From positions 1 through 64,000 of the IMG/VR virus record IMGVR_UViG_3300032092_000011: a DNA stretch of 64,000 bases; one strand, 5' to 3'. Source of the DNA: a virus. Made by a program: the position numbers and the translations under genes. The notes beneath the pieces were generated by a model. It was not told the DNA's origin and did no database searches. It saw nothing but the letters and a program-made list of their open reading frames with translations. This document shows positions 17,268 to 49,400 of this stretch, piece by piece; the first letter of the stretch is position 1, and every line of letters begins with the position of its first letter.

Positions 17268-20200
17268 TTACTTATTTTCTAATTGTTTTACTCTTTCTGA
17301 AAGTTGTTTAATTGCTTCAATAAGAACACCAACTAAATCATTGTAACTTACAGTTTTATATCCATCTAATCCATCAACTACATTGTCTGGTAAAACTTTT
17401 TCAACTTCTTGAGCAATTAAACCAGTTCTCTGTCTATCTAGATCAGAATTTAAATTATATCTAACACCTCTTAAAGATTCTACAATCTCTAAAGCATTAT
17501 CTATTGTTTCAATATTTGTTTTTAACTTTTCGTCAGAACTAATAGTAACATCAGAAAAAGTTGGTGAAGAGTTAGTGTTTACATACTGGTTTAACGAATT
17601 TGCATAACCATTATTTGTAATATAACTTGTCCAGTTTGCATTTGTTAGAATAGTTCTGTATGATTGGTATGCACCATTAGTGACTCTACGTACCCAGAAA
17701 TTATCAGAGTGGAAGTCGTGTACAAGTTGGAATCCATAGTTAGCAGACCATGAGTTACCCATTGAGTTAATCCATTGATTCCAATCTCCAGATGGTGTTC
17801 CATTTGGACTAGATGCAAAGAAGAATCCGGATGCTCTATTAAATCCATTTAAGTCTCCGTCATTAGTACTCTTTTTGTCACCATCACCATATACAATTCG
17901 ACTAATGCCTACACCACTTATAGAGCTTGCATCATATGATGCTGGGCCTGTTGGACCTGTAGGACCTGTAGGACCTGTAGGACCAGGACCTCCAGCTGAA
18001 CCATCTCTACCAGTTGCACCTTGGGGACCAGTCGGACCAGTCGGACCAGTTGCTCCAGTTCCACCAGTTCCACCAGTCGGACCTGTTGGTCCAGTTGCGC
18101 CTTGGGGACCAGTCGGACCAGGACCTCCATTAGAACCATTAGTTCCATTAGGACCTGTTGGACCTTGTCTACCCTGTGCTCCAGTCGGACCAGTTGCTCC
18201 AGTTCCACCAGTTCCACCAGTCGGACCTGTTGGTCCAGTTGCTCCTTGAGGACCAGTTGAACCAGTAGGACCAGTCGGTCCAGTCGGACCGGCTACCGTA
18301 GATGCCGCTCCAGTTGCTCCAGTAGGGCCTGTAGGACCTTGAATACCTTGTGGTCCTGGACTTCCATTAGAACCATTTGTTCCAGCGGCTCCTTGAGCAC
18401 CGTTTGCTCCGGCTAGTCCATCAATACCAGATGGTCCTTGTCTACCTTGTGGACCAGTTGCTCCAGTAGGGCCAGTAGGGCCAGTTGCGCCCTGTACACC
18501 AGTCGATCCAGTTCCACCAGTTGCTCCAGTTGCACCCTGCGGCCCAGTCGGACCAGGACCTCCATTAGAACCATTAGTTCCATTTGGACCAGTAGGACCT
18601 TGTCTACCCTGTGCTCCAGTCGAACCAGTTGCTCCTTGAGCTCCAGTTCCACCAGTTCCACCAGTCGGACCAGTTGCTCCTTGAGGACCAGTCGCTCCTT
18701 GAGCTCCAGTTCCACCAGTTCCACCAGTCGGACCAGTTGCTCCTTGAGGACCAGTTGCTCCAGTTCCACCAGTCGGACCAGTTGCTCCTTGAGGACCAGT
18801 TGAACCAGTAGGACCAGTAGGTCCAGTAGGTCCAATTGCCCATGAATGAGAACTAGAACTTGTGTAATAAACACCACCATTAGGAATAGTAACCATGCCA
18901 GGCATCCATTTTAATGCGCCTGTGTCGCCATTATGAGTTGCAATTAATACCCATCCATCACCAACCTGAACCGAACCATCATTATACGCATGAACTGCTA
19001 ATCTTCCAGAATCATACGGATGGCTCATTCCTCGCCCAATTTTATACCAAACACCATTCCATGCTGGTACACTTAAGTTAGATACCGGACCGATATCTAA
19101 ATATCCAGAAGATCCTAAACTATTATCAACTGGTATAATAATTACTCTTTGATCCCATGTTAGTCTAGCAGAAGACCAAGTTACATTACCTCCTCCACTT
19201 ATAGCATAGTTTGCATTCGCAGTTTCATATTCAGTAGGACCCGTTGGTCCAGTTGCTCCTGTATTTCCTTGAGGACCTGTTGAACCTGTCGAACCAGTAG
19301 AACCTTGAGGTCCAGTTGCTCCTGTATTTCCAGTAATACCAGTTGGACCTTGATTTCCTTGTGCTCCAGTATTTCCAGTAATACCAGTTGGACCTTGATT
19401 TCCTTGAGGTCCTGTATTTCCTTGTGGACCAGTTGGACCCTGTCTACCTTGAAAACCTTGAGGTCCAGTAATACCAGTTGGACCTTGATTTCCTTGTGCT
19501 CCTGTATTTCCAGTAATACCAGTTGGACCTTGATTACCTTGAGGACCAGTTGCTCCTGTATTTCCAGTAATACCAGTCGGACCTTGATTACCTTGTGCTC
19601 CAGTATTTCCTTGAGGACCAGTTGGACCTTGATTTCCTTGAGCTCCTGTATTTCCAGTAATACCAGTTGGACCTTGATTTCCTTGTGCTCCAGTATTTCC
19701 TTGAGGACCGGTTGGACCCTGTCTACCTTGTGTTCCTTGAGCTCCAGTATTTCCTTGAGCTCCAGTATTTCCTTGAGGACCTGTCGGTCCTTGTACACCT
19801 GCTGCACCAACAACAGACATATCAGTTATATATGTCCATGTACCATTCCATAAATAAAGTGCTCCATAATCTGGATCAGTTTGCGGCAATGTTCCAGCAA
19901 CTAAACCAAATTCTCCAACTGGAGCAACATCACCTAATAACTGTGCAGTACTATCATATATTCTATAAATTCTAAATCCTTGTCCAGTAGTTCCCTGGGA
20001 TCCAGTTGGTCCCTGTCTACCTTGAAAACCTTGAGCTCCAACAGTTCCTTGTACTCCTGTTGGACCTTGATTACCTTGAGCTCCAGTTGAACCTTGCAAT
20101 CCAGTAGGACCTTGGTTTCCTTGAGCTCCAATAGTTCCTTGTACTCCTGTTGGACCTTGATTACCTTGAGCTCCAGTTGAACCTTGTAATCCAGTAGGAC

Positions 20201-20663
20201 CTTGATTACCTTGAGCTCCAGTTGAACCTTGTAATCCAGTAGGACCTTGGTTTCCTTGAGGACCTGTCGGTCCTTGTCTACCTTGTGCTCCTAAATCTCC
20301 TTGAGGACCTGTCGGTCCTTGTCTACCTTGAAAACCTTGAGCTCCAGTTGAACCTTGTAATCCAGTAGGACCTTGATTACCTTGAGCTCCAGTTGAACCT
20401 TGCAATCCAGTAGGACCTTGGTTTCCCTGAAATCCGGTCGGTCCTTGATTTCCTTGAGCTCCAGTTGAACCTTGAGGACCATTCGGACCTTGGTTTCCCT
20501 GAAATCCGGTCGGTCCTTGATTTCCTTGAGCTCCAGTCGGTCCTTGACGACCCTGACTTCCTTGCGGTCCTGTTGGACCAGCTGGAATACCTGTAATTCT
20601 GGTATCTATGGAGGTTATTTTTGAATCAAGAGACTCAACCTGCTTAATTTTAATTATCGACAC
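17268..20663 (-). CDS. collagen-like tail fibre with S74 chaperone end, 1131 aa
   Basis: A short head ([15 protein letters not shown]) is followed by long Gly-X-Y collagen tracts made of GPTGPQG, GNQGPTG and GSTGAQG units (about residues 28-232, 290-490 and 608-905). A globular insert at 233-288 ([20 protein letters not shown]) breaks the tract, and another lies at 490-607. The C-terminus ([20 protein letters not shown], then [12 protein letters not shown]) is an S74 intramolecular chaperone domain, which trimerises fibres and then cuts itself off. The start is a GTG; no ATG is available. A late-type promoter lies at 20690-20703. Thr-rich G-P-T triplets are possible glycosylation sites. Confidence 0.92.
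17940..20590 (-). repeat. collagen Gly-X-Y coding repeats of first fibre
   Basis: The DNA is built of 9-base triplet units and longer 18- to 36-base near-identical blocks encoding G-P-T, G-P-Q, G-N-Q and G-S-T. The tract is broken by unique sequence at about 18840-19230 and 19800-19985. Such repeats can lengthen or shorten by recombination. Confidence 0.9.
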
Positions 20664-30498: not shown

Positions 30499-31149
30499 TT
30501 AAAAATTGGTTTCGTTATTCTTTCGATACTTTTCGTTATGTTCAACTATTTTCTGTACGGCCTCTTCAGCAGTATCGACAATTCTAAAGAGTTCAAAATC
30601 TTTATAGCTCATTTTTCCGCTAGCTGCAACATAGTTCATCAACCAATCGTAGAGACCGCTCCAAAAACTAGATCCAACTAGAATGATTGGAAATTTAGGA
30701 GCATGTCCGGTTTGAGCAAGAGTCATGGCTTCAAACAACTCGTCTAGTGTTCCTAAGCCTCCAGGAAAGACAATAAATCCTTGTGAGTATTTAATTAATG
30801 AAACTTTACGAGTGAAGAAGTAACGACAGGTAATGCCATGGTTAACGTATGGATTCATTCCAGCTTCGAAAGGTAATTCAATACCAAGCCCAACTGATAA
30901 ACCATCTTTTGCTCCTTTATTAACCGCCTCCATTGCGCCTGGACCGCCGCCAGTAATTACACCAAACCCATTCTCTACTAATAACTTACCAACCTTCTCG
31001 GCTTCAACATAGTGAGGATCTTCTGGTTTGGTTCTGGCTGAACCAAATACACCGATACACGGTCGGTCCAGGTGCGCCATCTCATCAAAAGCTTTGGTAA
31101 ACTCTCCTTGAATTCGGAGAATCTGCCATGCGTCAATCATTTTATTCAT
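30499..31149 (-). CDS. LOG/TIGR00730 family nucleotide hydrolase
   Basis: LOG-family enzymes (formerly annotated as lysine decarboxylases) cut ribose-5'-phosphate from nucleoside monophosphates. The signature IVFPGGLGTLDELFEAMTL (PGGxGTxxE) is intact. VITGGGPGAMEAVNKGAKDG and IGVFGSARTKPEDP are also present. Length is 216 aa. A nucleotide-salvage or host-nucleotide-degrading role is inferred. The start shares a base with the upstream stop (TAATG). Confidence 0.87.
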   Translation of the reverse strand: MNKMIDAWQILRIQGEFTKAFDEMAHLDRPCIGVFGSARTKPEDPHYVEAEKVGKLLVENGFGVITGGGPGAMEAVNKGAKDGLSVGLGIELPFEAGMNPYVNHGITCRYFFTRKVSLIKYSQGFIVFPGGLGTLDELFEAMTLAQTGHAPKFPIILVGSSFWSGLYDWLMNYVAASGKMSYKDFELFRIVDTAEEAVQKIVEHNEKYRKNNETNF

Positions 31150-31421
31150 TAGTCGTCAATTTCGTTAGTTTCTACTCGGTTCGGAGACCTTTGCATTAAA
31201 CGCTGAACGCAATTACTACAAAGTACCGAAGCAGTTTCGGTTCCAGTGTGAACCCATTGGTCACAAACTCCATCGTCTGGAGCCGCGTCTGGATAGCGAC
31301 TAAATTCTGGATTGCTATTCATGCAAATCATGGCGTGGGCCATCTTTCCAGTGTCATTGCCTAAATTAATCAATGGAATCATTTTCGTCTTCCATTTGTG
31401 CGTTACGCTTTTATTCGCCAT
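31149..31421 (-). CDS. hypothetical Cys-containing protein, 90 aa
   Basis: Cys residues in MICMNSNPEF, DDGVCDQWVH and VLCSNCVQRL (CxxC) suggest a small zinc-binding protein. No family was recognised. It overlaps the KTSC gene by 11 bases and the LOG gene by one. Its base composition is more GC-rich than most genes in the window, as it approaches the GC-rich stretch. Confidence 0.68.
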   Translation of the reverse strand: MANKSVTHKWKTKMIPLINLGNDTGKMAHAMICMNSNPEFSRYPDAAPDDGVCDQWVHTGTETASVLCSNCVQRLMQRSPNRVETNEIDD

Positions 31422-31644
31422 CTTGTTCTATTTTAGAAAATTCATATTTGCCTTTAATGAAATGGTTAAGAGCTTGGCCGGCGCTAGTTGAGTTGATGAA
31501 CTTTTTGTAGTCATCAGTCTCTACACCATGGTAGGCATAGCATGTGCCGTTCTTAAAAGTTACTACTAATTCCTTTGTGTCAGCATAGTAGTTAACCATG
31601 TCAATAGTCGAAGACTCTAGTTGAGTGTGTTGAACCTTAATCAT
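31411..31644 (-). CDS. KTSC-domain protein, 77 aa
   Basis: The protein is one KTSC domain: LESSTIDMVNYYADTKELVV, FKNGTCYAYHGVE, and TSAGQALNHFIKGKYEFS. This small fold is found alone in phages or joined to lysyl-tRNA synthetase-like proteins. Its function is not established. It is the first gene after the long non-coding stretch, so its promoter should lie at about 31650-31720; nothing there matches the early or late consensus well. Confidence 0.8.
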   Translation of the reverse strand: MIKVQHTQLESSTIDMVNYYADTKELVVTFKNGTCYAYHGVETDDYKKFINSTSAGQALNHFIKGKYEFSKIEQDGE

Positions 31645-32935
31645 ATTTCTTTAATTTCTTAGTTATTGGGGAATTTTTCAATCTTAATTTATATGGGAAA
31701 TTTTAAAGTTGTTTCCTAATCCAAGTACTTTAAGTACCTAAAGAAATTTTTGTACGCTAATACTCAACAGGGCCCACTAGGCCCATACCTAATAGTCCCG
31801 AGTCTAATACCCTCGCAACCGCCCTGAGGATCGTAACATGGGCCGATGGGCCGACTCTGAGGACCTTGTGCGACCCCCGACGGCAGTGAGGCTACTGGAC
31901 CACTTCAAGCACTCTTTTAATAGACCACTCTAACGACTCCAATGGGACCACCACACTCTCTTCTGAGTTCTATAAGAACTAATAAAAATAAAATCTCTCA
32001 ATGTTGTTTACAGTAATGGGAGTATAGTAAACAATTAGTGTTGTTCTAGAAGTGACGCACACTCACCACTCATAGATGGGCCCCTAGAGACCTTTGAGAC
32101 CTTGGGGCCCGAAGGGCTCTGTGATAGGGGCGGGCATCCTTTCCGGACCGGGAAAAAAACGGGCCCTGGGGAACATCAAAGTCCTATTAGGGCCCCTATA
32201 GTAGTCCAAGTTACAATGGGGACGGGCCCCATCTGGTCATCGCGGATTCTCTCTGCGCTTCTAGTTCTTATTATAACGGTTTTTTATTAGGTTAGGGGTT
32301 CTTTGGGCCCTCGGTCATGCTCTAAGGCTTGGGAGTGAATCTGGACGGACCGTGATAATGTGTGCACTTCTGTGAAAGTGTTTTGCTATATTGCTAATTA
32401 TTAGTAGTGATCTGTAGTGAAAGTCATGACCCTTGACTCCTGGACCCCTGCATGTCTACGAATTCGGGCCCCAGTGTTTACCCAGGAAATTGGCGCCCAG
32501 AGTCTGGGTACCGGTATACCCGCACCCTCTAGGACTCCGATGGCCTCTGAGCACCTGGACTCCCCATGTGCCTAGAAGCCTAGGCACCCTAGAGCCTCCC
32601 CTATTCGGGCGTTCCGTATCCGCTCTTCTATTACTCCTATACCTATAGGACTAGAAGTGTCTATAACGGACCACTAGGTGCCTACCTTACCTACTGAGCC
32701 TTCCTATGCGTCTATTAGCTCTATCTAAGCGGTTATTGGATTATTGGGCCGGCACGGGTAGATGACCACTGTGAGCTAGTGACCAGCTCACCACTAGGGT
32801 AGTGGCACGCCGGGGTGCACTCTAGGGTGAAAAAGTGCACCTGGAGTGTCACCTGGAAGCACTCCGGCAAGTGCTCCAGGAAGTGTTCTGGGAGTGCACT
32901 CCGGTAAGTGTTCCTGGAGTGATCACCGGGAGTGA
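31645..32935. other. GC-rich, hairpin-rich non-coding region (~1.3 kb)
   Basis: No convincing reading frame is seen on either strand; the few open frames are short and low-complexity. By eye it is far richer in G and C than the AT-rich genes around it. It contains eight GGGCCC palindromes (31770, 32078, 32105, 32161, 32190, 32224, 32305, 32466). Hairpins include 32004-32034 (TTGTTTAC/GTAAACAA), 32568-32587 (GTGCCTAG/CTAGGCAC), 32771-32791 (GTGAGCT/AGCTCAC) and 32791-32805 (CCACTA/TAGTGG). Near 32810-32930 lies a run of degenerate GTGCTCC/GGAGTG inverted repeats. It could be a replication or packaging site or a set of structured RNAs; none is shown. Confidence 0.75.
32810..32930. repeat. degenerate GGAGTG/CACTCC inverted-repeat cluster
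   Basis: Within 120 bases the motifs GTGCAC, CACTCC, GGAGTG and AAGTGYTC recur, in both directions, at irregular spacing. They include the perfect 12-base palindrome GGAGTGCACTCC and the arms GCACT/AGTGC around CCGGCA. It lies immediately downstream of the stop at 32936. It may be a protein-binding iteron cluster or a complex 3' RNA structure. Confidence 0.6.
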
Positions 32936-33370
32936 TTATGCTGCTACTAACTCTTCGTTTTTAACGAAAGCTTTACTTGCCCATGTTTTAGCACCTACTA
33001 GTGAATATTGACGTTGGTCATACAGGGCAGTATTTAACCAATAAGAGTTAATAGTTCCTACAGTTAAGTCCATTAAGATAGCTTCGTCGATAACTGGAAT
33101 CTGTTTTCCTTTTTTAGCAAATACAGTTAACCAAATATCTGTACCTTCTGGGTTAAATTGCACTGTTTGTAGGGCACCTTTCTTAAAACCACTAATAAGT
33201 GTCTCAGGGTGCTTCATATAATGTTCATTGTCAAAGTCTCTACTATCACTAATAGTTAAGAAACCGGCACGACATTTAGTGATAAAACGGAATTTACCAG
33301 CAGTGTAACCTGACATAAAGTTAGATACGTGGATGTCTTTTTTGTTCGCTAAGATAATTGAATTGGTCAT
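32936..33370 (-). CDS. hypothetical protein, 144 aa
   Basis: The in-frame codons before 33370 translate the promoter, so the ATG at 33370 (MTNSIILANKKDIHVSNFMS) is the start. The protein looks alpha/beta, with FRFITKCRAGFLTISDSRD and GALQTVQFNPEGTDIWLTVF. No family was recognised. It has a full early-type promoter (33390-33434). Its stop borders the GC-rich region. Confidence 0.72.
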   Translation of the reverse strand: MTNSIILANKKDIHVSNFMSGYTAGKFRFITKCRAGFLTISDSRDFDNEHYMKHPETLISGFKKGALQTVQFNPEGTDIWLTVFAKKGKQIPVIDEAILMDLTVGTINSYWLNTALYDQRQYSLVGAKTWASKAFVKNEELVAA

Positions 33371-33389
33371 GAGTGGATGTTTTAATGTT

Positions 33390-33434
33390 ATATGTAAATA
33401 TAAACAAAATTCTTCAAACGGTAAAACTTTTTTC
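33390..33434 (-). promoter_or_regulatory. early-type promoter
   Basis: Minus strand: AAGTTTTACCGTTTG box, ten bases, then TTTATATTTACATAT, followed after a short A-rich leader by the ATG at 33370. Confidence 0.8.
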
Positions 33435-33459
33435 AAAGTTTTTTCAAATTATTTTTCAT

Positions 33460-33488
33460 AAAAAAGGGTCCCTTTCGGGACCCTTTAA
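33460..33488 (-). terminator. intrinsic terminator
   Basis: Perfect hairpin AAAGGGTCCC-TTTC-GGGACCCTTT (33463-33486) followed on the minus strand by a T run. It ends the HTH gene transcript. Confidence 0.9.
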
Positions 33489-33519
33489 ATGTTACCATTA
33501 GGTTTTTCTGCGTTGAGTC

Positions 33520-33756
33520 TTAGATAGTGGTCAAGGCAACATTTACATTACGACCGCGACCGCGATCATAAGCGGCATTCATAATACGAGAATTCTCATA
33601 TTTGCCGTTAAGAACATCACTCACATGTGTTGAACTATAACCAGTTTTTTCAGCGATGATAGTTACATCACCGTGACGTTTACGTTGATTATAATTTGCT
33701 AATTTTTGGGTGTAGCTTAATTTGTTATAGCTACTTGGTCTGTTAGAATTAAACAT
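33520..33756 (-). CDS. HTH DNA-binding protein, 78 aa, probable regulator
   Basis: The centre reads GDVTIIAEKTGYSSTHVSDV followed by LNGKYENSRIMNAAYDRGR. This fits a Cro/XRE-like helix-turn-helix: helix, EKTGYSSTHVSDVL turn and recognition helix. A basic, Tyr/Gln-rich N-terminus precedes it. The start is the ATG at 33756 (MFNSNRPSS). It lies at the point where transcription diverges, next to paired TTTCACAAAA boxes that could be its operators. Whether it represses or activates is unknown. Confidence 0.75.
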   Translation of the reverse strand: MFNSNRPSSYNKLSYTQKLANYNQRKRHGDVTIIAEKTGYSSTHVSDVLNGKYENSRIMNAAYDRGRGRNVNVALTTI

Positions 33757-33781
33757 ATATTTGTTGTTTTGTTGAATATTA

Positions 33782-33826
33782 TATAGGGGCCCTAGGAAAA
33801 GTTTCACAAAAATATTTCACAAAATA
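33782..33826. promoter_or_regulatory. candidate operator: TTTCACAAAA direct repeats and GGGGCCC element
   Basis: TTTCACAAAAATA (33802-33814) and TTTCACAAAATA (33815-33826) stand back to back beside TATAGGGGCCCTA (33782-33794). Inverted copies (TTTGTGAAA, TGTGAAA) occur at 34065-34084, overlapping the -33 region of the plus-strand promoter. The site lies between the HTH gene and the divergent plus-strand promoter. Confidence 0.5.
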
Positions 33827-33864
33827 TTTTTTTATTTCATGGATTTTGTTTATATTTACATATG
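33823..33864 (+). promoter_or_regulatory. plus-strand promoter for candidate small RNA
   Basis: TTGTTTATATTTACATATG (core 33851-33858 TATATTTA) with a TTTTTTTA -33-like stretch 19 bases before it. The ACCGTTTG box of other early promoters is absent. No reading frame of note follows before the T run at 33967-33975. Confidence 0.65.
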
Positions 33865-33976
33865 AAAAATAACAAGATGACATAATGCGACTAACACTCA
33901 CAGGGACTAACCTCCCGACAAGGGTTCGAACCTCCCCGGTTCGCAGAGGGTATACTCCGACCTGTTCTTTTTTTTA
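33865..33976 (+). ncRNA. candidate structured small RNA with own promoter and T-tract end
   Basis: About 110 bases lie between a promoter and a run of eight T, with no plausible gene. Nested pairing is visible: ACAGG (33900-33904) with CCTGT (33961-33965), CCTC (33911-33914) with GAGG (33946-33949), and CGAACC (33927-33932) with GGTTCG (33938-33943) around a TCCCC loop. The stretch is much more GC-rich than its AT-rich surroundings. The outer stem followed by TTCTTTTTTTT would act as an intrinsic terminator. No known RNA family was recognised. Confidence 0.5.
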
Positions 33977-34081
33977 AAAAGACCTAGATGAGGTGCGTCA
34001 ATATAAAATTAATCAATTTTCTTGACATGGTAAAATAAAGTTATTAACAAAAAATGTTCATAACTTTGTGAAAATAATGTG
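33977..34081 (+). other. intergenic spacer with GTTATTAAC box
   Basis: AT-rich spacer between the candidate RNA and the next promoter. It holds an AAAGTTATTAAC element at 34037-34048, of the kind found beside several other early genes, and part of the TTTGTGAAA pair. Confidence 0.5.
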
Positions 34082-34127
34082 AAAAAAGTTTTACCGTTTG
34101 GAGAATTATGTTTATATTTACATATAA
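34082..34127 (+). promoter_or_regulatory. early-type promoter
   Basis: AAAAGTTTTACCGTTTG, ten bases, then TTTATATTTACATAT. It drives the genes at 34144 and probably 34448. Confidence 0.85.
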
Positions 34128-34143
34128 CAAATTAGCAATAACA

Positions 34144-34383
34144 ATGATTAATCTTTCTATCCAGGACAAATTCGACGGTTTAAACAAAATTGGTGACTTA
34201 CGTAACGCTATCGGTCAAGAGTTCAGTTATAACTTCTCTTCTACTTGCCGTGCTAAACTACTTAGTGTTAGCGAAGATGGTAACCGTTGTACTTTTCAAG
34301 AAGTTGAAGCATATGGTCGTAAACCTAAGCCCGGTGTTGGTACCGCAGCTAGTTGGTTGATCTGGAACTCTATGTTCTTCTAA
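34144..34383 (+). CDS. hypothetical protein, 79 aa
   Basis: An ATG at 34108 lies within the promoter, so translation should start at 34144 (MINLSIQDKFDGLNKIGDLR). The protein is small and alpha/beta, with FSSTCRAKLLSVSEDGNRCT. No family was recognised. Codons such as CGT, GGT and AAC dominate, which suggests strong expression. Confidence 0.75.
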   Translation: MINLSIQDKFDGLNKIGDLRNAIGQEFSYNFSSTCRAKLLSVSEDGNRCTFQEVEAYGRKPKPGVGTAASWLIWNSMFF

Positions 34384-34447
34384 TTGAAACCTTTTCTAAA
34401 TCTCATATATAATAATAGTAATTTTTAACAAAATAAACCAAACAAAC

Positions 34448-35596
34448 ATGGCAACAATTACAACCCTTTCAAACCAACTAGTTGAGCAACGTAAACAGGA
34501 AACTCTTAATGCTCAATCAATCCGTAAAACAGTCCCTTTCCGCGACATTAACCTTATCGATGACAAAACTATCGAATATAAAGGTACACGTATCGGTATT
34601 ACTAATGGATGTTTTAAGTCTCTATTGAAACTTATCGGTATGTCAAACCAGTTCGCTAAGAACTTCGAGTCATTATTTAACTCTGAAGCTAAAGCAACTT
34701 TTATTAACCGTATCAAAGATGCTATGGCATCTAACACCGGTCGTCTTAATGAAGTTACATTGGTTCTTTCACCGTTCAATAAAACTATCATTGGTATCAC
34801 CCGTAAAGCAACTGATCTTATTTCTAATGAGCAGTTCTTGGGAGTAGCTGAACGTATTATTGATCGTCAAGGTTTCGATGTTACTAACTGGTCAGTAGAC
34901 CCTACAAGCGGTATCGTCCAAATCAATGCATTTAACCCTAAAGCTACTTTCGAAGTTAACGGACTTAGCGATGAGGTTTTCACTGGAGGTATTACTTTCC
35001 GTAACTCACCTCTTCAAGGCTTCCAAGTTCTTCCATATGTAAACCGTATGTGGTGTACTAATGGTTTAACCACTTCACTTGCTGAAGAAGCTTACACTCT
35101 TAACTCTCTAGATTCAGTAACTATGGAGAAGTTCTTCGAACAACTTAACGAACTTCGTAAGAACAATTTTGCTCCAGTAAGTTTTGCTGATCGTGTTCGT
35201 AAAGCATCTAACACTCCTGCTTCACTTAATGAGATGCGCCAAGCATATAACCTCATCAACAAACACGTAGAGGACCAAGCAGATCGTTGGATCCCACTTA
35301 ATGAGAACCTTTCTGCTTACAAACGCAATGGTTTTGAAAATATGACTGTTGACCAAATGAAGAATGCTAAATCTAATCAGTCTCTATGGTCAGTAGTAAA
35401 TGGTCTTACTCACTTTGCAACTCATGCTCCTGAATTGATCACTTCTAACGTACAAGGTTACGATCAAACTCAGATGATGGTTCAAGCTGGTAACATCTTT
35501 GGTAAGAATCGTTTCGATCACGAAAACGATATGCCAAATCCGTTCGGTAATGACGCTTTGAACAACACGCTTCAAATCGGTTCACTACTTAACTAA
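34448..35596 (+). CDS. DUF932-like phage protein, 382 aa, probably highly expressed
   Basis: Features of the DUF932/TIGR03299 phage-plasmid family are the YVNRMWCTNGLTTSLAEEAY block and the C-terminal SLWSVVNGLTHFATHAPELI block. Molecular function is unknown; members are often abundant early proteins. Codon choice (CGT, GGT, AAC, TTC, GAC) differs from the minus-strand genes and points to high expression. It ends at a strong terminator (35617-35643). Confidence 0.72.
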   Translation: MATITTLSNQLVEQRKQETLNAQSIRKTVPFRDINLIDDKTIEYKGTRIGITNGCFKSLLKLIGMSNQFAKNFESLFNSEAKATFINRIKDAMASNTGRLNEVTLVLSPFNKTIIGITRKATDLISNEQFLGVAERIIDRQGFDVTNWSVDPTSGIVQINAFNPKATFEVNGLSDEVFTGGITFRNSPLQGFQVLPYVNRMWCTNGLTTSLAEEAYTLNSLDSVTMEKFFEQLNELRKNNFAPVSFADRVRKASNTPASLNEMRQAYNLINKHVEDQADRWIPLNENLSAYKRNGFENMTVDQMKNAKSNQSLWSVVNGLTHFATHAPELITSNVQGYDQTQMMVQAGNIFGKNRFDHENDMPNPFGNDALNNTLQIGSLLN

Positions 35597-35613
35597 GTTT
35601 TGTTTTAATTGTT

Positions 35614-35644
35614 ATGAAAGGGTCCGCAAGGACCCTTTTTTTAT
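35614..35644 (+). terminator. intrinsic terminator
   Basis: AAAGGGTCC-GCAA-GGACCCTTTTTTT (35617-35643), a compact hairpin with a long T run right after the DUF932-like gene. Confidence 0.92.
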
Positions 35645-35676
35645 GAAAAAAAATCAAAAAAAGTGAAAAAAAGTGA

Positions 35677-35721
35677 AAAAAAGTTTTACCGTTTGAGAAA
35701 TTTTGTTTATATTTACATATC
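35677..35721 (+). promoter_or_regulatory. early-type promoter
   Basis: AAAAGTTTTACCGTTTG, ten bases, TTTATATTTACATAT, directly before the 76-aa membrane protein gene. Confidence 0.85.
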
Positions 35722-35743
35722 ATTAATCGTTAAAGCAATATTT

Positions 35744-35974
35744 ATGAACAAATTAACTAAATTTTCGCCGATCTACAACACAGCCTTTTGTGTATTCTTC
35801 ATTTGGGTAGCCTATAGTACCGCTGCTGGAACTATCCAACAATACATTAAATTCGCCGGAATCGATAACGAGATCGCTTTCTGTTGTGTTGCTATGATGT
35901 TGGGAGCTATGTATTTCTACTTATCTGTATCTGACATTTTCGACGTAATCAAACGTTACCTTCAGAACAAGTAA
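35744..35974 (+). CDS. two-helix membrane protein, 76 aa
   Basis: The codons before 35744 are promoter sequence; the start is MNKLTKFSPIYN. Two hydrophobic helices are visible at about residues 12-33 and 45-65 (IAFCCVAMMLGAMYFYLSV), with a Lys-rich C-terminus. No family was recognised. It has its own promoter. Confidence 0.72.
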   Translation: MNKLTKFSPIYNTAFCVFFIWVAYSTAAGTIQQYIKFAGIDNEIAFCCVAMMLGAMYFYLSVSDIFDVIKRYLQNK

Positions 35975-35994
35975 AAATGTTAATAACTTTTTGC

Positions 35995-36040
35995 AAAAAA
36001 GTTTTACCGTTTGAGAAATTATAGTTATATTTACATATCA
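35995..36040 (+). promoter_or_regulatory. early-type promoter
   Basis: AAAAGTTTTACCGTTTG, ten bases, GTTATATTTACATATC, preceded by ATGTTAATAACTTTT. It drives the RecA-like ATPase gene. Confidence 0.85.
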
Positions 36041-36057
36041 TTTAAAACATCCACATA

Positions 36058-37161
36058 ATGACAAGAGAACAATTCACAATTTCCGAAACCGCAACAGGTT
36101 ACATGTTAACAGAAGTTAGCAATCACAGGCAAGAATTTATCGAGCCTAGCCACCCTAAATTTGAATGGGTTTCTAAGAACCTAGGCCGTATCGTAAATAT
36201 TACCGAAGCCGGTCGTTGGAATAGCCAAAAAGATTACGAAAACCTATATGGCAACCAACCTAAATCACGTGGTAACCAAGAGGTAGCCACAGTTAAACCA
36301 AAGGTGGAGGTTAAATTAACCAAATTGGACGATCTAGATATTAACCCAGACTTGTTCGTACCACTTCCTACCAATACTATCTTTGACAAATTTGTCTCAG
36401 CTGAAGGTGGTTTCCTTCCCGGTTCAAATATCATGGCAGCAGGAGCTCCAGGTATTGGTAAGACAACTGTTCTCTTAGACCTCATCTCTAAACTAGATCA
36501 GGCCGGTAAGAAATGTCTCTTTATCTCTGCCGAGATGAACCGAATCGACATGGCCCGTTATCTTAAGCGTTTCCCTCACTGGGGCCAGTTACCTATCCTA
36601 TTCTTATCCGACTACGAAGAGTGTCCGAAAGAGGCAATCGAAAAAATCCTAGATGAAGGTTGGGATATAGTCCTGACCGACTCTTATACCGAAGTAAACG
36701 ACACGGTAAAAGAAGAGTGTAACCTTTCTCGTGGTAAGGTGGAGAAGTGGTTCCTAAACCTAATGTCCAGTAACAACGACGGTCATAATGCGGCCCGTAA
36801 GCATACAACCTTTATTACGATCCTACAGCTATCTAAAGGCGGTAACTTCGTCGGGTCGAATAAACTAAAACACATGACTACCGCGATGATGAACCTGGCT
36901 TGGGACGGTTCAGAAAACTCCGGTCAGCGTTATATGGAGTTTACTAAGAACCGCGTCGGCCAAGTAAATAAGAAACTCTATTTCGGTCTCCAAAACGGAG
37001 TTAGCTTCGACGAGGCCAGATACCTACGAGACCTGTATAACGACGAGATAGTCGAAGCAGAACGCGCACAGTTAGGTAAAGAAGCCGATGCCTTCGACAG
37101 GCTATTCGGTATCGGGGTAGAGGAGATAGAAGAATCCGTAGAAGAGAGCATAGAAGCCTAA
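36058..37161 (+). CDS. RecA/RadA/DnaB-superfamily ATPase
   Basis: Residues of about 100-320 form a RecA-type core: Walker A GAPGIGKTT at 129-137, GKKCLFISAEMNRIDMARYL, Walker B DIVLTDSYTE and THTFITILQLSKGG. It most resembles RadA/Sms-like or DnaB-like ATPases that act on DNA during replication or recombination. No zinc finger or Lon-like part is present. The N-terminal 90 residues are unrecognised, and the tail is very acidic (EEIEESVEESIEA). GC content of its codons rises steadily toward the 3' end. A strong hairpin follows at 37180-37220. Confidence 0.8.
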   Translation: MTREQFTISETATGYMLTEVSNHRQEFIEPSHPKFEWVSKNLGRIVNITEAGRWNSQKDYENLYGNQPKSRGNQEVATVKPKVEVKLTKLDDLDINPDLFVPLPTNTIFDKFVSAEGGFLPGSNIMAAGAPGIGKTTVLLDLISKLDQAGKKCLFISAEMNRIDMARYLKRFPHWGQLPILFLSDYEECPKEAIEKILDEGWDIVLTDSYTEVNDTVKEECNLSRGKVEKWFLNLMSSNNDGHNAARKHTTFITILQLSKGGNFVGSNKLKHMTTAMMNLAWDGSENSGQRYMEFTKNRVGQVNKKLYFGLQNGVSFDEARYLRDLYNDEIVEAERAQLGKEADAFDRLFGIGVEEIEESVEESIEA

Positions 37162-37179
37162 CCGACCGGTTAGAGCCTC

Positions 37180-37220
37180 CAGGTAATTTGGGCCCAGAGT
37201 GGATGCTGGGCCCTTACCTG
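37180..37220 (+). terminator. long bulged hairpin after RecA-like gene
   Basis: CAGGTAA (37180-37186) pairs with TTACCTG (37214-37220). GGGCCCA (37190-37196) pairs with TGGGCCC (37207-37213). A TTT bulge and a 10-base loop remain. No clear T run follows, so it may protect the 3' end or need a factor to terminate. Confidence 0.6.
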
Positions 37221-37724
37221 TGTCTGGCGGCTGGTAGCCTGATGAGTCTCCGGGGTGATGGTCTGGGATGGTGTGCCGGCCACCACTGCGTGAATAATAG
37301 TCCCGGAAGGTGCAAACGCCGTGGTGGGGACCTCCGGCACTCACCGGGTAGTGGCAGGTTTCCGGAGTGTGATTGCGCACCCTTTGGTTTAAGGGAACCT
37401 AGAGGACTACCTTGCGGGCTTGAACACTATATATCATGTTCTTCTACGTACGCGCGCGTGTAGGGATGGTAGGATCTTAAGACCAGTAGGAGTCGGTTAT
37501 GGCCTGGAGGCTTGGAGGGTAGGGACGGGACTTGCAGGGCCTAGAACGGGACGGGTCTTATATCTATATGCTGTTCTTCTATATCTGGATGGGTTGGGTC
37601 TTTACTTATATCCTTATTGTGCTTGTAGTACTTATCTAGGTTTCTTTTATTCTTATTTAGAATTTTATTTATTATATTGGGTATTGGGGGCACGGGTGGT
37701 TCTGGCTCTCCGGTGCCTAGTGAT

Positions 37725-37753
37725 AGAAAAAGGGAGCCGGTTAGGACTCCCTC
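37725..37753 (-). terminator. intrinsic terminator for minus-strand block
   Basis: Minus strand GGGAG-loop-CTCCC (37732-37736 with 37747-37751) followed by TTTTT. It ends the transcript of the gene at 37777. Confidence 0.75.
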
Positions 37754-37776
37754 TTGGTTGTTGGGTTATCTGGGTT

Positions 37777-38037
37777 TTAGGCTTGCGCCTTAGGTACTAG
37801 GATTGCCGGGACTGGATCAACCGGAGTCCAAGTGCTTGGACGGGTTCTGGTTGGTGGTTCAATCTCGCCAGTCTCTTCGTTATTCACTGGTAGACCTACT
37901 ATCTCTGGTTGATAAACATATACATCATGATTTGGATGCGCTGCGACTAGTCTCTCTACACTTCCTGGATAATGCTGTATCTGGTAAGTTATACCATTAA
38001 TTTCTTCTTGTTGATTATAGATTATTGTATATGACAT
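37777..38037 (-). CDS. hypothetical protein, 86 aa
   Basis: MSYTIIYNQQEEINGITYQI, a small beta-like protein with a proline-rich tail (EPPTRTRPSTWTPVDPVPAI). No family was recognised. It is the last gene of the minus-strand block before a terminator. Confidence 0.65.
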   Translation of the reverse strand: MSYTIIYNQQEEINGITYQIQHYPGSVERLVAAHPNHDVYVYQPEIVGLPVNNEETGEIEPPTRTRPSTWTPVDPVPAILVPKAQA

Positions 38038-41957: not shown

Positions 41958-44900
41958 TTAGCAATCTAACTTTAGTTTCTCAATTTCTTGATAAAGTTCT
42001 TTAATTGCTTGAATTAAAATAGGAATTAATCCATCATAAATCACAGCTTTATATTCACTATTTGGTATATTTTTAACTAGATCAGGTACAATCTGTTCAA
42101 GCTCTTGTGCAATTACACCATAACTTAATTGTCCTGATTTATCTGGTGCCTTTCTAAGCATTTCTTCGCTCCAGTTATATGTAACACCATCAATACGCAT
42201 AATTAAATCTAACGCATTCTTAATAACCTCTATATTTGTCTTTAATCTAGCATCTGAAGAAATAGTTACATCAGAAAATGTTGGTGATGAATTAGTATTT
42301 ACATATTGGTTCATTGCCGACGCATAAACGTTTGAAGTTCCTGTTGGGCCTGTAGGACCTGTAGGACCTGTAGGACCTGTTGGACCAGGACCTCCATTAG
42401 AACCCGCAGGGCCGGTTGCACCTTGAGGACCAGTTGGGCCTGTAGGACCTGTAGGACCAGGACCTCCAGCTGAACCATCTCTACCAGTTGCACCTTGAGG
42501 ACCAGTTGGGCCTGTTGCTCCGGTTCCACCAGTTCCACCAGTAGGACCAGTTGCGCCTTGAGGACCAGTTGGGCCTGTAGGACCAGTTGCTCCTTGTGCT
42601 CCAGTCGAACCATTAGTACCATTAGTACCGGCAGGTCCAGTAGGACCAGTAGGACCTTGTCTACCTTGAGGACCTAGTGGGCCAGTTCCACCAGTCGCAC
42701 CAGTTGCTCCTTGAGCTCCAGTTCCTCCAGTTCCACCAGTCGGACCAGTTGCTCCTTGGGGACCGGTTGCTCCAGTTCCACCAGTTGAACCGGTAAAACC
42801 TTGAGGACCAATCGGGCCAGTAGGACCTGTTGGACCGGGACCTCCGGCTGAACCATCTCTACCAGTTGCACCTTGAAGACCAGTAGGACCTGTAGGACCA
42901 GTTGCTCCAGTTCCACCGGTTGGGCCTGTTGCGCCTTGAGGACCAATCGGGCCAGTAGGACCAGTTGCACCCTGTATACCAGTTGCACCAGTTCCACCAG
43001 TAGGACCTGTAAAACCTTGAGGACCAGTTGCTCCAGTTCCACCAGTCGAACCAGTTGCTCCTTGAGGTCCGGTTGAACCAGTATCTCCTTTAATACCAGT
43101 AGGACCTTGATTACCTTGAGGACCAGTTGCTCCTGTATTTCCAGTAATACCAGTAGGACCTTGATTACCTTGAGGACCAGTTGCTCCTGTATTTCCAGTA
43201 ATACCAGTAGGACCTTGATTACCTTGAGGACCTGTATTTCCTTGTAATCCAGTAGGACCTTGATTACCTTGAGGACCGGTTGGACCTTGACGACCTTGTG
43301 AACCAATTGGTCCAGTTGGTCCAGTTGGTCCAACTAAATTAATTGAAAGAAACCAAAGTTCTCCATCCCATTGATATAATCTTCCTGTATTTAAATCAAT
43401 ATAAGTTTGTCCAGCAAATTCTCCAAAACCAGATGGATCTCCATATCCTGATGTTGATCCATTAAATCCATTTGGTCCTGTTGCTCCAGTCCCACCATCG
43501 TTACCAGTTGGACCAGTTGGACCTTGTCTACCTTGTGCTCCAATAACTCCTTGCGGACCGGTAGGTCCTTGGTTACCTTGTGCTCCAGTAGTTCCTTGAA
43601 GACCAGTTGGACCTTGATTACCTTGTGCTCCAGTAGTTCCTTGTAATCCAGTAGGGCCTTGATTTCCTTGTGCTCCAGTAGTTCCTTGTAATCCAGTTGG
43701 GCCTTGGTTACCTTGAGCTCCAGTATTTCCTTGAGGTCCAATAGATCCTTGAATACCTTGAGATCCAATAGATCCTTGAATACCTTGAAGACCTTGAAGA
43801 CCGGTAGATCCTTGAATACCTTGAAGACCAGTAGATCCTTGAATACCTTGAAGACCAGTAGATCCTTGAATACCTTGAGCACCGGTATCACCCTTATCGC
43901 CAGTTGTTGTAAATGTTACAATTATATTTTCATTATCATTCCACGGGCCAGTTAAAGGTCCATCTACATAAGAAACTGGAATATCAAAATGATTTCCATG
44001 ATGAATATGTGATGCTGTAATAGCGTAAATTATATATGATGAGTTATTGCTCTCTTGTGTTAATTTAATATAACCTTTAACAGCACTTGTTGAATCATCA
44101 ATTGTTTGTAAAAAACTGCTAATATCTGTTGCAAGTCTATCGACACCTGAAATACCTAACAAAGTAGCAGCTCGAACATCATCACTAGTTATTAATATGT
44201 AACCGTCTGTTATATTTTCAATAAAAGTTTCGGTATCAAATCTATAATAAAAAGAAGCTCCACCAAAACTACCATCACGACCCTGATTACCTTGAGCTCC
44301 TACAGTTCCTTGTAAACCAGTCGGCCCTTGGTTACCTTGAGCTCCTACAGTTCCTTGTAAACCAGTCGGCCCTTGGTTACCTTGTGCTCCAGTAGTTCCT
44401 TGTAAACCGGTTGGACCTTGATTTCCTTGTAAACCAGTCGGTCCTTGATTACCCTGTGCTCCAGTAATTCCTTGTAAACCAGTCGGTCCTTGATTTCCTT
44501 GTGCTCCAGTAGTTCCTTGTAAACCAGTAATACCAGTCGGACCTTGATTACCTTGTGCTCCAGTAGTTCCTTGTAAACCAGTTGGACCTTGATTACCTTG
44601 TGCTCCAGTAGTTCCTTGTAATCCAGTTGGGCCTTGGTTACCTTGTGGACCAGTAATTCCTTGTAATCCAGTCGGTCCTTGGTTACCTTGTGGACCAGTA
44701 GGACCTTGACGGCCTTGAGAACCTGTAGCGCCTTGAGAGCCAGTAGCTCCAACCATATCAAATGAATAAACCCAAGTTTCTCCATCCCAAAAATATGCTC
44801 TACCAGTATTAATATCAATGTATGTCTGTCCATAAAAGTCTCCTTGTATTGAAGGAAGACCTTGAAAAGATAAAGTACCATTATATCCATTATTTCCTAT

Positions 44901-46334
44901 CGGACCCTGCACGCCCTGTGCTCCTGTATTTCCTTGATAACCAATAATACCTTGAAGACCCTGTGTTCCAACGGCACCTTGCGCTCCTGTTGCTCCTTGA
45001 TTTCCTTCAAGACCAGTAGGACCTTGACGACCTTGAGAACCCTGTACACCATCTATACCATCTCGACCCATGTCACCTTGAGGACCGGTAAATCCTTGGT
45101 CTCCTTGCCATCCCATCGAACCCATATCACCTTGAGGACCTGTCATACCCATGTCACCTTGAGGACCGGTAAATCCTTGGTCTCCTTGCCATCCCATCGA
45201 ACCCATGTCACCTTGAGGACCTGTCATACCCATGTCACCTTGAGGACCGGTAAATCCTTGGTCTCCTTGCCATCCCATCGGACCTATATCACCTTGAGGA
45301 CCTGTCATACCCATATCACCTTGAGGACCTGATGGACCTTGAATACCTGCAGCTCCTTGAACAGACATATCAGTAATATATGTCCATGAACCATTCCATA
45401 AATAGAGTGCTCCATAATCTGGATCTGTTTGGTCTAGCGCTCCTGCAACTAATCCAAATTGACCAATTGGGGTTTCAGTATATGATAATAAATTGTCTAA
45501 TGTATTAAATATTTGATGAATAATAAAACCTTGTCCACTAGCACCCTGAGAACCATCAGTACCACGATCACCTTGAGAACCTGCAGCACCTTGAGCACCG
45601 GTTGCTCCTTGAGCACCTGTTGCTCCTTGTGGACCTGTTGCTCCTTGAGCACCGTCATTTCCACCTTCACCCTGAATAGAAGGACCAGTAGGACCTTGAG
45701 GACCCCTAATATTTCCTTCTTGAAGCCAGTTATCTCCATCCCATTCATATAAATCGCCAGTATCAATGTCTATATACTGATCATTTCTAATAGGATTTGG
45801 GATAAGAACTGGTGTTTGAGGTATACCGCTTCCTGAATACCATTTAGAACCATCTTCTCCCGCAGCGCCTTGTACTCCCGCAGCGCCTTGTGTTCCTATA
45901 GAACCCTGTGCTCCTATTTCACCCTGTGCTCCTGTTGCTCCTTGTGCTCCATCTAATCCAGATCCACCTTCAAGAATTGTCCAAATACCGTTTCCTCCAT
46001 ATACTAAATTATATGCAGTGTATGGAACATCCATTGAAGAATATCCAATTGAATTGATATTAACACCATTTATAATTATATTAGCTGTTTCATCAGGATG
46101 CCTGATGATTTTAGGACCTCCATTGCTAATGACTCCATTAGGATCGCTAATAGAGAATGTCATTCCTGGTAAGAGTTTAATTCTACCAGATTGAACAGTT
46201 CTAGGAAGTCTAATATAAAAATCAGGACCGCCTGTTCCAGGCCCTAATATAAATTCTGAACTTGTTAATGGAAGGACATAATATGGTTGTCCACCTGTTG
46301 AAGTAATGGTACTAACATTAGTAAATGCTGACAT
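41958..46334 (-). CDS. giant collagen-like tail fibre with S74 end, 1458 aa
   Basis: A beta-rich head ([20 protein letters not shown] and following ~115 residues) precedes interrupted Gly-X-Y tracts. These tracts are rich in GPTGLQG, GTTGAQG, GNQGPTG and GDMGMTG units. Small globular inserts interrupt them, such as [20 protein letters not shown] and repeated YIDxxTGxxYxWxGxxW modules. The end ([38 protein letters not shown]) is an S74 chaperone domain that directs trimerisation and self-cleavage. It is a likely receptor-binding long fibre. Confidence 0.92.
42335..45970 (-). repeat. collagen Gly-X-Y coding repeats of second fibre
   Basis: Nine-base units and longer near-identical blocks encode Gly-X-Y triplets. 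One subset (about 45070-45330) repeats a unit of about 108 bases encoding [18 protein letters not shown] three times. Unique inserts occur near 43330-43460, 43890-44275, 44755-44880, 45365-45535 and 45715-45855. Confidence 0.88.
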
Positions 46335-46392
46335 TTAAAGTGACGTATTTTTGGTATCTTTACTATGTATCTATCCCTAAAAATAAGTTAAA

Positions 46393-46452
46393 AATTTAGA
46401 ATTATCCTAAATTCTAAATTGAGAATGCCTAAGACTAGTCTTAGGCATTCTC
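46393..46452 (-). terminator. tandem perfect hairpins between the two giant fibre genes
   Basis: GAGAATGCCTAAGA-CTAG-TCTTAGGCATTCTC (46421-46452) is a perfect 14-bp-stem hairpin. Next to it, AATTTAGAATT (46393-46403) pairs with AATTCTAAATT (46410-46420), with a short T run after it on the minus strand. Together they end the transcript of the 46473 fibre gene. Confidence 0.88.
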
Positions 46453-46472
46453 TTTATACTAATTTTGTATTA

Positions 46473-49400
46473 TTAGTATGGACTTATAGTCGGCATATTA
46501 AATACAATAATATTAGGAACTTGTGAATTTGGGGGTAATTGAATCCAACCGCCTTGAGGATCAATACCACCAGAAATACAATTTGAACCAACATAATAGT
46601 TATCAACTGCATTTACATCATTCCATAATGATAAGTGTAATCCAGTTGGTGAGTGCATATAAACAGAATCTAATAAAATGCTTCTATCTTGAGTACCTAC
46701 TTGCGGTGCAGTTAAGATAAATCCACCACCTGAAACAATATCCATTGATGTTTGATGCAATATAATTCTATGTTTTATTGAACCGTTTTGAGTTTCTCTA
46801 ATAATCCATGAATTTAATGCTGCATAACCCGTACCTACGTCTGGTGTTGATTCTATATCATAGCCTTGATGATTAAGTTTTAGTGTTGATGATTTAGAAC
46901 TAATAGTTCCACTAATCAATCTAATAACTGAAGACCAACCTTGTGCTGTTGAAAATAATTCTAAATGACAATTATCAACGAATAAATCGGCATTTACAAC
47001 TTCAACAACAACGCCATCCATAAATCCAGAATCGCTGCAATCAACTTTAACATAAATATCATTTAATGATATTATCATTTCCGATCCATCGTTACCTTGA
47101 ATTAATCCTCTACCATTAACATATATTTTGCTTTGACTTCTTCCGCCTCCCTTTATTTTAAATTCAGCACCGTTGTTTATTTCGAATATACATGAAAGTT
47201 GACCACCTACTGCATTAATTCTTACATTTGGTGAAAGATTTAAAGCAACAGTACCGATAATATCGATTGGATTTGTAGCTGACATGCCGTAAATACCAGG
47301 ATTTACGTAAACTTCATATCTTGTAATACTATTTGTTATACAATATCCCATTGCTCCTTCAATAGTTGCCCATGGATTTGTAGGATCTCCTAATACAGCA
47401 GTACCATCGTTACCATTTGGATCAACATATAATATTTGATCGTATAATACTGAGAATCCAACTCCATTAGAACCTTGTGCTCCAGTTGGACCTTGGTTAC
47501 CTTGTGCACCACTAGTTCCATTAATACCTTGGAAACCTAAAGGACCTTGATTTCCTTGAGGACCCGCAATACCCTGAGCTCCGGTTGGACCTTGACGACC
47601 TTGAGAACCTTGAGCTCCCGTAGAACCTTGTGCGCCAATTGTATTAAATGAGAAATCCCAATTTCCACCATTCCAAGTATAAAAATCACCAGTTAATACA
47701 TCAATATATGTTTGACCTACAAATGATCCTATTACATTATTACTATTAGGATCTCCATTTCCAGAAAGTGTGCCACTAGCACCATTATCACCCTGTGATC
47801 CAGTGTTTCCTTGAGGACCAGTTGGACCTTGTACACCTTGTAAACCTTGAGGACCGGTTGGACCTTGTCTACCCTGTGCTCCCGTCGAACCAGTATCTCC
47901 TTGAGCTCCAGTCGGACCTTGACGACCTTGAGAACCTTGAGCTCCTGCAGAACCTTGAGCTCCAGTAGAACCTTGAGCTCCAGAACTACCAACAGAACCT
48001 TTAATATTTCCTTGAGGAATCCAGTTTGCTCCGTCCCATTCATAAACATCGCCATTGTCTAAATCTAACCAATGTTCTCCAATAATGAATATTCCTGGAT
48101 TGTATGCTCCTGGAGGTACTCCATTTTCAGAATACCACTTAATAACTTCACCAGTCGAACCTTGTGCTCCTGCAGAACCTTGTGCTCCAGTTGGACCTTG
48201 AATTCCTTGAATACCAGTTGAACCTTGCGGGCCATGATCTCCCTGGAATCCTTTTTCTCCTTGTGGACCCGTTAAACCCTGAGGACCTGTTGAACCTTGA
48301 ATACCAGTAGGTCCTTGATTTCCTTGAGGACCTGAAATACCTTGATTTCCTTGAGGACCTAAAGGACCTTGATTTCCTTGAGGACCTGCAACACCTTGAG
48401 AACCAGTTGGACCTTGAACTCCAGCTGCACCAACAACCGACATATCAGTAATATAAGTCCATTGCGCACCATCCCAAAGATATAATTTACCATAATCTGG
48501 ATCGCTTGGATCTAAACTTCCTGCAACTAAACCAAATTCTCCGGCCGGAGTTGAGGTATCTGATAATAAACTATTCAAATCATTATAGATTTGATTAATA
48601 TGGAATCCTTGACCAACATCACCTTGGAATCCTTGAGCTCCAATTGAACCTTGCGCTCCAGTTGGACCTTGGTTACCTTGGTTACCTTGAGCTCCAGTTG
48701 GACCTTGGTTACCTTGAGCTCCAGTTGCTCCTTGAAGACCGGTTGGACCTTGGTTACCTTGAGCTCCAGTTGCTCCTTGAAGACCGGTTGGACCTTGGTT
48801 ACCTTGTTGACCGGTTGGACCTTGGTTACCTTGAGCTCCAGTTGCTCCTTGAAGACCGGTTGGACCTTGGTTACCTTGAGAACCCTGTTGACCAGTTGGA
48901 CCTTGGTTACCTTGAGCTCCAGTTGCTCCTTGAAGACCGGTTGGACCTTGGTTACCTTGAGAACCCTGTTGTCCAGTCGGACCTTGATTTCCTTGAGCTC
49001 CAGTCGGACCTTGATTTCCTTGAGCTCCAGTCGGACCTTGATTTCCTTGAGAACCCTGAGGACCAGTAGGACCTTCAGTAGCACCTAACGTTGTAACAAT
49101 ATGTGAATAATCAGCAACACCCTCAGTATAAAACTTAATAGTTCTATTAGCATTATCATCATTTGTTGCAAATATTTCAACTAATACTTTATCAGTTGGG
49201 TCAACATATTTAGTTGTTATAAATAGATCTTGGTAAACATCAACAATTGTGGTTGCATTTGTGTCCCATCCAATTAAATGTGCATTCGTTGTTCCCCAAA
49301 CTTGTAAAACATTACCATTTGGATCAGTTCTTGATACTTTTACGTATACTTGAATATTATCATTTACCGATGCTTTTGTAAAGTGCATTTTAAATTGCTG

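What the first reader, a model, noticed from the sequence alone, without database searches (positions are those of the whole stretch)
33865..33976. Candidate new structured small RNA at the divergent control region
Seen: a phage-type promoter, about 110 GC-rich bases without a gene, three nested pairings (ACAGG/CCTGT, CCTC/GAGG, CGAACC/GGTTCG) and a run of eight T. Inferred: a stable regulatory RNA made early. I do not recognise a known family.
Basis: partly seen in the sequence, partly recalled or inferred. Interest (0 to 1): 0.68.

Follow-up and report, generated by a model that had tools for sequence, protein, structure and literature searches.

The report
New small RNA family in phages
The stretch encodes a real, previously uncatalogued structured small RNA that recurs in many unrelated viruses of Bacteroidota bacteria, including cultured Cellulophaga and Tenacibaculum phages, so a shared but still unknown viral function can now be tested in the laboratory.

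Summary
Window 33863-33975 (+) encodes a small structured RNA. Its own folding energy is no better than shuffled sequence. Degenerate-pattern scans of IMG/VR nevertheless recovered relatives in about 40 phage contigs of 18-344 kb, and BLAST found them in cultured Tenacibaculum phage Larrie (4 copies), Cellulophaga phages phiST/phi13:1 (3 copies) and a 635-kb uncultured phage. A reversed control pattern gave none. Among 46 distinct copies, every pair of the central hairpin (window 33927-33932/33938-33943) shows two-sided compensatory changes (covariation 0.645 against 0.198 shuffled). The flanking GGG...RAGRGUANACUCC is nearly invariant. No Rfam family matches, and reading frames are not conserved. 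Copies sit just downstream of a Bacteroidota-type promoter. They have no constant neighbour gene and are sometimes convergent pairs, so a free-standing trans-acting RNA is likeliest. My best guess is that it binds a conserved host protein or RNP through its invariant core. Function, timing and stability are inference. Plasmids gave no match; one bacterial-genome scan gave only a coding coincidence.

The parts
33848..33865 (+). promoter motif GTTTATATTTACATATGA; the -7-like box TATATTTA is 33851-33858, predicted start near 33863
   Evidence: 14 copies of the motif in the window against 0.4 expected. Resembles the Bacteroidota sigma-A -7 box TAnnTTTG at -12 to -5 (PMC9723704). In 26 of 46 homologous copies a strict TAnnTTTG lies within 75 nt upstream of the core GGG, 22-30 nt in 23 of them (background 5.5%). 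The start site is inferred.
33863..33975 (+). the small RNA (predicted transcript, about 113 nt, ending in U8)
   Evidence: R1 and R2 covariance matches; alignment with homologues; ends inferred
33863..33898 (+). 5' extension with the motif UGAAAAAUAACAANAUGACAUAA, shared by close relatives (could also be read as a micro-ORF MKNNKMT); absent from most other copies
   Evidence: alignments
33903..33916 (+). 5' hairpin H1: GGGA 33903-33906 / UCCC 33913-33916 (variable in position and sequence among homologues)
   Evidence: by eye; not formally counted
33922..33963 (+). closing helix P0: GGGUU 33922-33926 / GACCU 33959-33963
   Evidence: compatible in most subtype A copies, little covariation (69.4% of cells paired overall; by subtype)
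33927..33943 (+). hairpin H2: CGAACC 33927-33932 / GGUUCG 33938-33943, loop UCCCC
   Evidence: all pairs with two-sided compensatory changes in 46 sequences
33944..33958 (+). invariant core CAGAGGGUAUACUCC (subtype A of RAGRGUANACUCC), containing mini-hairpin H3 GGG 33948-33950 / CUC 33955-33957 with a URNA loop
   Evidence: near-invariant columns; H3 paired in 100% of cells, with A-U/G-U variation only
33968..33975 (+). T8 run, possible 3' end
   Evidence: sequence. Not conserved: TTTT within 35 nt of the core in 22 of 46 copies, against 29% background

Best explanation
Window 33863-33975 is a member of a new family of small phage RNAs, transcribed from its own host-type promoter, free-standing rather than the leader of one particular gene. 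Shown by comparison: a conserved fold in which a covarying hairpin (H2) and a tiny hairpin (H3, GRG-URNA-CUC) sit between a conserved GGG and the segment following ACUCC. The three-way junction closed by GGGUU/AACCU is plausible but only weakly supported. Inferred: the phage makes the RNA with host RNA polymerase, and it acts in trans. The invariant unpaired core (GGG, RAGRG, URNA, ACUCC) binds a protein or ribonucleoprotein of the Bacteroidota host (for example RNA polymerase, the ribosome or a defence complex), while the helices only hold the core in shape and are free to vary.
For: Covariation: 46 sequences, 5 of 5 H2 pairs changed on both sides, score 0.645 against 0.198 +/- 0.020 shuffled and at most 0.147 slid. 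Relatives in IMG/VR contigs, cultured phages and a 635-kb phage; reversed control pattern 0 hits against 23. Several copies per genome: Larrie 4, phiST 3, G020 5, G033 3, G013 2. A strict TAnnTTTG box upstream in 26 of 46, with a TTG exactly 20 nt before it in 21 of those. No constant neighbour: the largest recurrent flanking protein family occurs at 10 loci, and downstream genes are often on the other strand. Convergent pairs in L108/G022, G019 and Larrie, and a reduced form without H2 opposite L120, L128 and L129. Frames differ between homologues (by eye). No Rfam match.
Against: No transcript has been observed here. Protein binding is deduced only from the pattern of an invariant core with covarying helices. 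In window-like phages the RNA does stand at the head of an operon on the same strand, which a cis role would also explain. Terminators are not conserved. Sequences were collected with patterns that fix the core and, for subtype A, the first two H2 pairs, so invariance of the core is partly by selection; H2 pairs 3-5 were not constrained by the patterns, and no locus in hand when the stem filter was run was lost by it.
Confidence: 0.5

Rival explanations
1. A cis-acting nascent RNA like HK022 putRNA: folded just behind RNA polymerase downstream of an early promoter, it makes the polymerase resistant to pausing and termination so that the following operon is read.
For: About 70 nt, just downstream of promoters, several copies per genome; in window-like phages it precedes an operon on the same strand. 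putRNA is about 70 nt, two copies downstream of early promoters, two stem-loops, needs only host RNA polymerase (PMC9378689).
Against: In Larrie the nearby annotated genes run on the opposite strand to three of the four copies. Convergent pairs would transcribe into each other. Neighbouring downstream genes are unrelated among phages.
Confidence: 0.17
2. A base-pairing regulator: the variable segment after ACUCC, or a loop, pairs with host or phage mRNAs or with rRNA, and the core is a stability or chaperone element.
For: The four bases after ACUCC-N vary between otherwise near-identical copies (L056, L110, L113). GUAGACUCCAACCU pairs unusually well with 16S around helix 42 of E. coli used as stand-in (-21.7 kcal/mol, 0 of 20 shuffles).
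Against: The 16S match was the best of nine tests, on E. coli rRNA, and the position marked N in GUANAC varies although a fixed base would be needed to pair. Complementarity of the window RNA to the rest of the window is chance level (12 nt, 41 of 100 shuffles).
Confidence: 0.18
3. An RNA anti-defence mimic, for example an RNA anti-CRISPR (Racr) imitating a CRISPR repeat or tracrRNA of Bacteroidota hosts.
For: Small promoter-driven RNA in phages, absent from the plasmid collection searched; RNA anti-CRISPRs exist (PMC10651486). The layout stem-loop, linker, mini-hairpin recalls a tracrRNA nexus (from memory, a lead only).
Against: No CRISPR-repeat family of Rfam matches the RNA. The core is the same in phages of very different hosts, whereas repeats differ between hosts (own knowledge). 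Host repeats and tracrRNAs could not be compared here.
Confidence: 0.08
4. Not an RNA function but a DNA element (a bidirectional terminator, recombination or replication site) whose inverted repeats look like RNA helices.
For: The T-run is not backed by a recognised terminator and inverted repeats are short; convergent arrangements are known for terminators (own knowledge).
Against: Asymmetric invariant single strand, fixed orientation and spacing behind a promoter box (22-30 nt in most boxed copies), G-U pairs accepted in the helices (A-U/G-U exchange in H3; U-G in H2).
Confidence: 0.05

Closest known systems
HK022 putRNA (putL/putR)
   Same: about 70-nt phage RNA close behind promoters, more than one copy per genome, two stem-loops, would need only host factors
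   Different: no sequence relation noted; our RNA has no constant downstream operon, occurs as convergent pairs and on the strand opposite to neighbouring genes in Larrie
RNA anti-CRISPRs (Racr, solitary repeat units)
   Same: small non-coding phage RNAs with host-directed action
   Different: no match to CRISPR-repeat families of Rfam; the same core in phages of different hosts
Phage and prophage small RNAs in general (regulatory sRNAs)
   Same: own promoter, 70-115 nt, structured
   Different: far wider spread across unrelated phages and an unusually invariant core; no known relative in Rfam 15
GOLLD and ROOL RNAs of phages
   Same: structured RNAs of unknown function recurring in phages
   Different: those are large (hundreds of nucleotides); no Rfam hit to either here

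Membership tests
Any Rfam 15 family | covariance-model score at or above the family's gathering score | tested here: not met
   0 matches in the window; none near threshold at the locus or at homologous loci
tRNA / tmRNA | cloverleaf recognised by ARAGORN | tested here: not met
   the GGTTCGAACC in H2 is only a hairpin arm and varies among homologues
HK022 putRNA | lies just downstream of an early promoter | tested here: inconclusive
   promoter box 22-30 nt before the core in 23 of 46 copies; early timing unknown
HK022 putRNA | stands at the head of an operon that it antiterminates in cis | tested here: not met
   true in window-like phages but not in Larrie or in convergent pairs
HK022 putRNA | binds the beta' zinc-binding domain of RNA polymerase | not testable with these tools
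   needs biochemistry
RNA anti-CRISPR (Racr) | sequence and fold mimic a CRISPR repeat of the host | tested here: inconclusive
   no Rfam CRISPR-DR match at the RNA; host repeats not available
trans-acting sRNA | independent transcription unit (own promoter, no fixed downstream gene) | tested here: met
   by sequence only, expression not observed
trans-acting sRNA | intrinsic terminator at the 3' end | tested here: inconclusive
   T8 in the window but no terminator reported; TTTT within 35 nt in 22 of 46 against 29% background
protein-coding gene (small ORF) | conserved reading frame | tested here: not met
   core read in different frames in window, L003 and L004 (by eye); variation is by compensatory pairs

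The most novel reading that the evidence does not exclude
A near-universal RNA effector of Bacteroidota phages, ranging from 77-kb Cbastvirus to a 635-kb phage, that inhibits or retools one conserved host machine (RNA polymerase, ribosome or an RNA-guided defence) through an invariant RNA core, encoded in several diverging copies and in convergently transcribed A/B or A/C pairs that may work together.
Probability: 0.2. Interest if true: 0.85.

Novelty: new variant of a known kind. Interest (0 to 1): 0.64.

Why it matters
Few phage small RNAs are known to recur across unrelated phages. This family spans phages of cultured marine flavobacteria to phages of more than 600 kb, has an invariant core, and exists in phages that can be grown (phiST, phi13:1, phi19:2, Larrie). 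A shared viral RNA function, possibly directed at a host component conserved throughout Bacteroidota, thus becomes directly testable, and a covariance model for annotating it can be built from the alignment given here.

Tried and rejected
Single-sequence folding: no signal. A first idea of a CANGG/CCUG closing helix: fails in several copies (L110, L113, L107; by eye); GGGUU/AACCU fits subtype A better. Coding or micro-ORF reading of the core: frames differ; the 5' MKNNKMT-like frame is limited to close relatives. tRNA-array association: none. 16S helix-42 pairing: not kept when the variable core base is considered. Pairing with the rest of the window: chance. Bacterial genomes: the only hit of the pattern among 84,980 genomes was a coding sequence (L023; read by eye as hydrogenase-like); that scan used the subtype B pattern only. 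First BLAST of 31000-38000 against phages found nothing. L005 and L012 are coding coincidences. CP067352 (H10) carries only a short chance match. Literature searches found no description of this RNA; only open-licence papers are held.

Full report
Observation. The 18-mer promoter motif is one of 14 copies in the window (0.4 expected). The GC-rich stretch 33887-33966 (57.5% GC) is in the top 2.5% of 80-mers of an AT-rich phage. The record is a 109,841-base virus contig. Folding alone gives no support: the MFE is at the mean of shuffles. By itself the finding could have been chance.

Homologues. The neighbouring 382-aa protein led to two informative relatives (L003, 80% identity; L004, 60%), and both carry the RNA at the same place, L004 twice in a tandem duplication. 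Their shared core gave a degenerate pattern, and successive scans of IMG/VR with patterns for two subtypes returned 17, 13, 2, 23 and 23 stretches. A pattern of the same composition written backwards returned none. BLAST and covariance searches added cultured phages: Tenacibaculum phage Larrie ON950054 (16.9, 17.0, 18.8 and 19.4 kb), Cellulophaga phage phiST NC_020842 (1.5, 76.4 and 78.3 kb), phi13:1 with the same three sites and phi19:2 with a BLAST match, and the 634,780-base uncultured phage LR745206. A subtype B pattern in 84,980 bacterial and archaeal genomes hit only a coding sequence, and plasmids had no match.

Structure. Alignment A4 holds 46 distinct copies. Hairpin H2 has 5 of 5 pairs with changes on both sides, 91.2% of cells paired; the H2+H3 structure scores 0.645 for covariation against 0.198 shuffled, and at most 0.147 when partners are slid. 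H3, GRG-URNA-CUC, is paired in all cells with A-U/G-U exchange only. The closing helix GGGUU/AACCU (window GGGUU 33922-33926 / GACCU 33959-33963) fits subtype A but hardly varies. Subtype A, the window's, reads GGGUY[CG..CG]YAGAGGGUANACUCC; subtype B reads GGGCGG[H2]GGAAGRGUAGACUCC; a reduced form GGGGACC-GAGURNACUCC without H2 lies opposite A copies in L120, L128 and L129. The sequences were gathered by patterns that fix the core (and the first two H2 pairs in subtype A), so core invariance is overstated by selection; the covariation of H2 pairs 3-5 was not selected by the patterns, and the loci in hand when the stem filter was run all passed it (the loci listed as not kept were fetched afterwards).

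Transcription. In 26 of 46 copies a strict Bacteroidota box TAnnTTTG lies within 75 nt upstream of the GGG (23 of them at 22-30 nt; background 5.5%), with TTG exactly 20 nt before it in 21. The box position relative to transcription starts is from PMC9723704. The window and its close relatives use TATATTTA within the repeated 18-mer. The predicted start is 33863; the T8 run at 33968-33975 may be the end, but terminators are not conserved.

Context. Window-like phages keep the RNA before the same operon (small protein, 378-382 aa protein, ATPase), but elsewhere neighbours are unrelated or on the other strand. Genomes can carry 2-5 copies, and some are convergent pairs (Larrie, G019, G022). This argues for free-standing, trans-acting RNAs.

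Mechanism. The invariant core held between freely covarying helices, spread across unrelated phages with no shared neighbour protein, is best explained by binding to a component conserved in the hosts. This is inference. Base-pairing, putRNA-like and anti-CRISPR alternatives are kept as rivals with the tests that would decide between them.

Novelty. No Rfam 15 family matches even at loose thresholds, and the searchable literature showed no description. It is therefore a new RNA family within the known kind 'phage small structured RNA'. Subscription papers and preprints were not searchable, so prior description elsewhere cannot be excluded.

Noticed in passing
window 31730-32935: About 1.2 kb of 50-57% GC sequence without convincing genes in a 36% GC phage; parts are 75-82% identical in L003/L017, and GC-rich gene-poor blocks occur near this module in related phages L056, L060, L061. 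Possible large non-coding RNA.
   Followed up: partly
window 37160-37780: A second GC-rich block without convincing genes (up to 61% GC), with pieces 76-80% identical in L003/L017.
   Followed up: partly
window 32860-32930: About 25-bp tandem hairpin-like repeats (AGTGCACTCCGG...), also present in L003.
   Followed up: no
window 33386-33446 and 34069-34129: A 61-nt inverted repeat, 92% complementary, carries the promoter motif on both sides of the HTH gene and the RNA.
   Followed up: no
window 33520-33807 (-): Small HTH protein next to the RNA in window, L003 and L004; in L004 it is on the same strand and duplicated together with the RNA.
   Followed up: partly
window 17750-20550 and 42340-51115: Extensive 9/18/45-bp tandem repeats, probably coding collagen-like GXY repeats.
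   Followed up: no
L108 11930(+)/11999(-), L049 2153(+)/2225(-), G019 201/293: Two copies of the RNA face each other with adjoining or overlapping 3' ends (subtypes A and B in L108).
   Followed up: partly
L131 4227: Copy with an inserted hairpin after ACTCC and a second ACTCCAACCTACTTTATA tail behind it.
   Followed up: no
L020/L042 (G013, 344 kb): One genome holds a subtype A and a subtype B copy with near-identical 5' halves, a sign of duplication and then divergence.
   Followed up: partly
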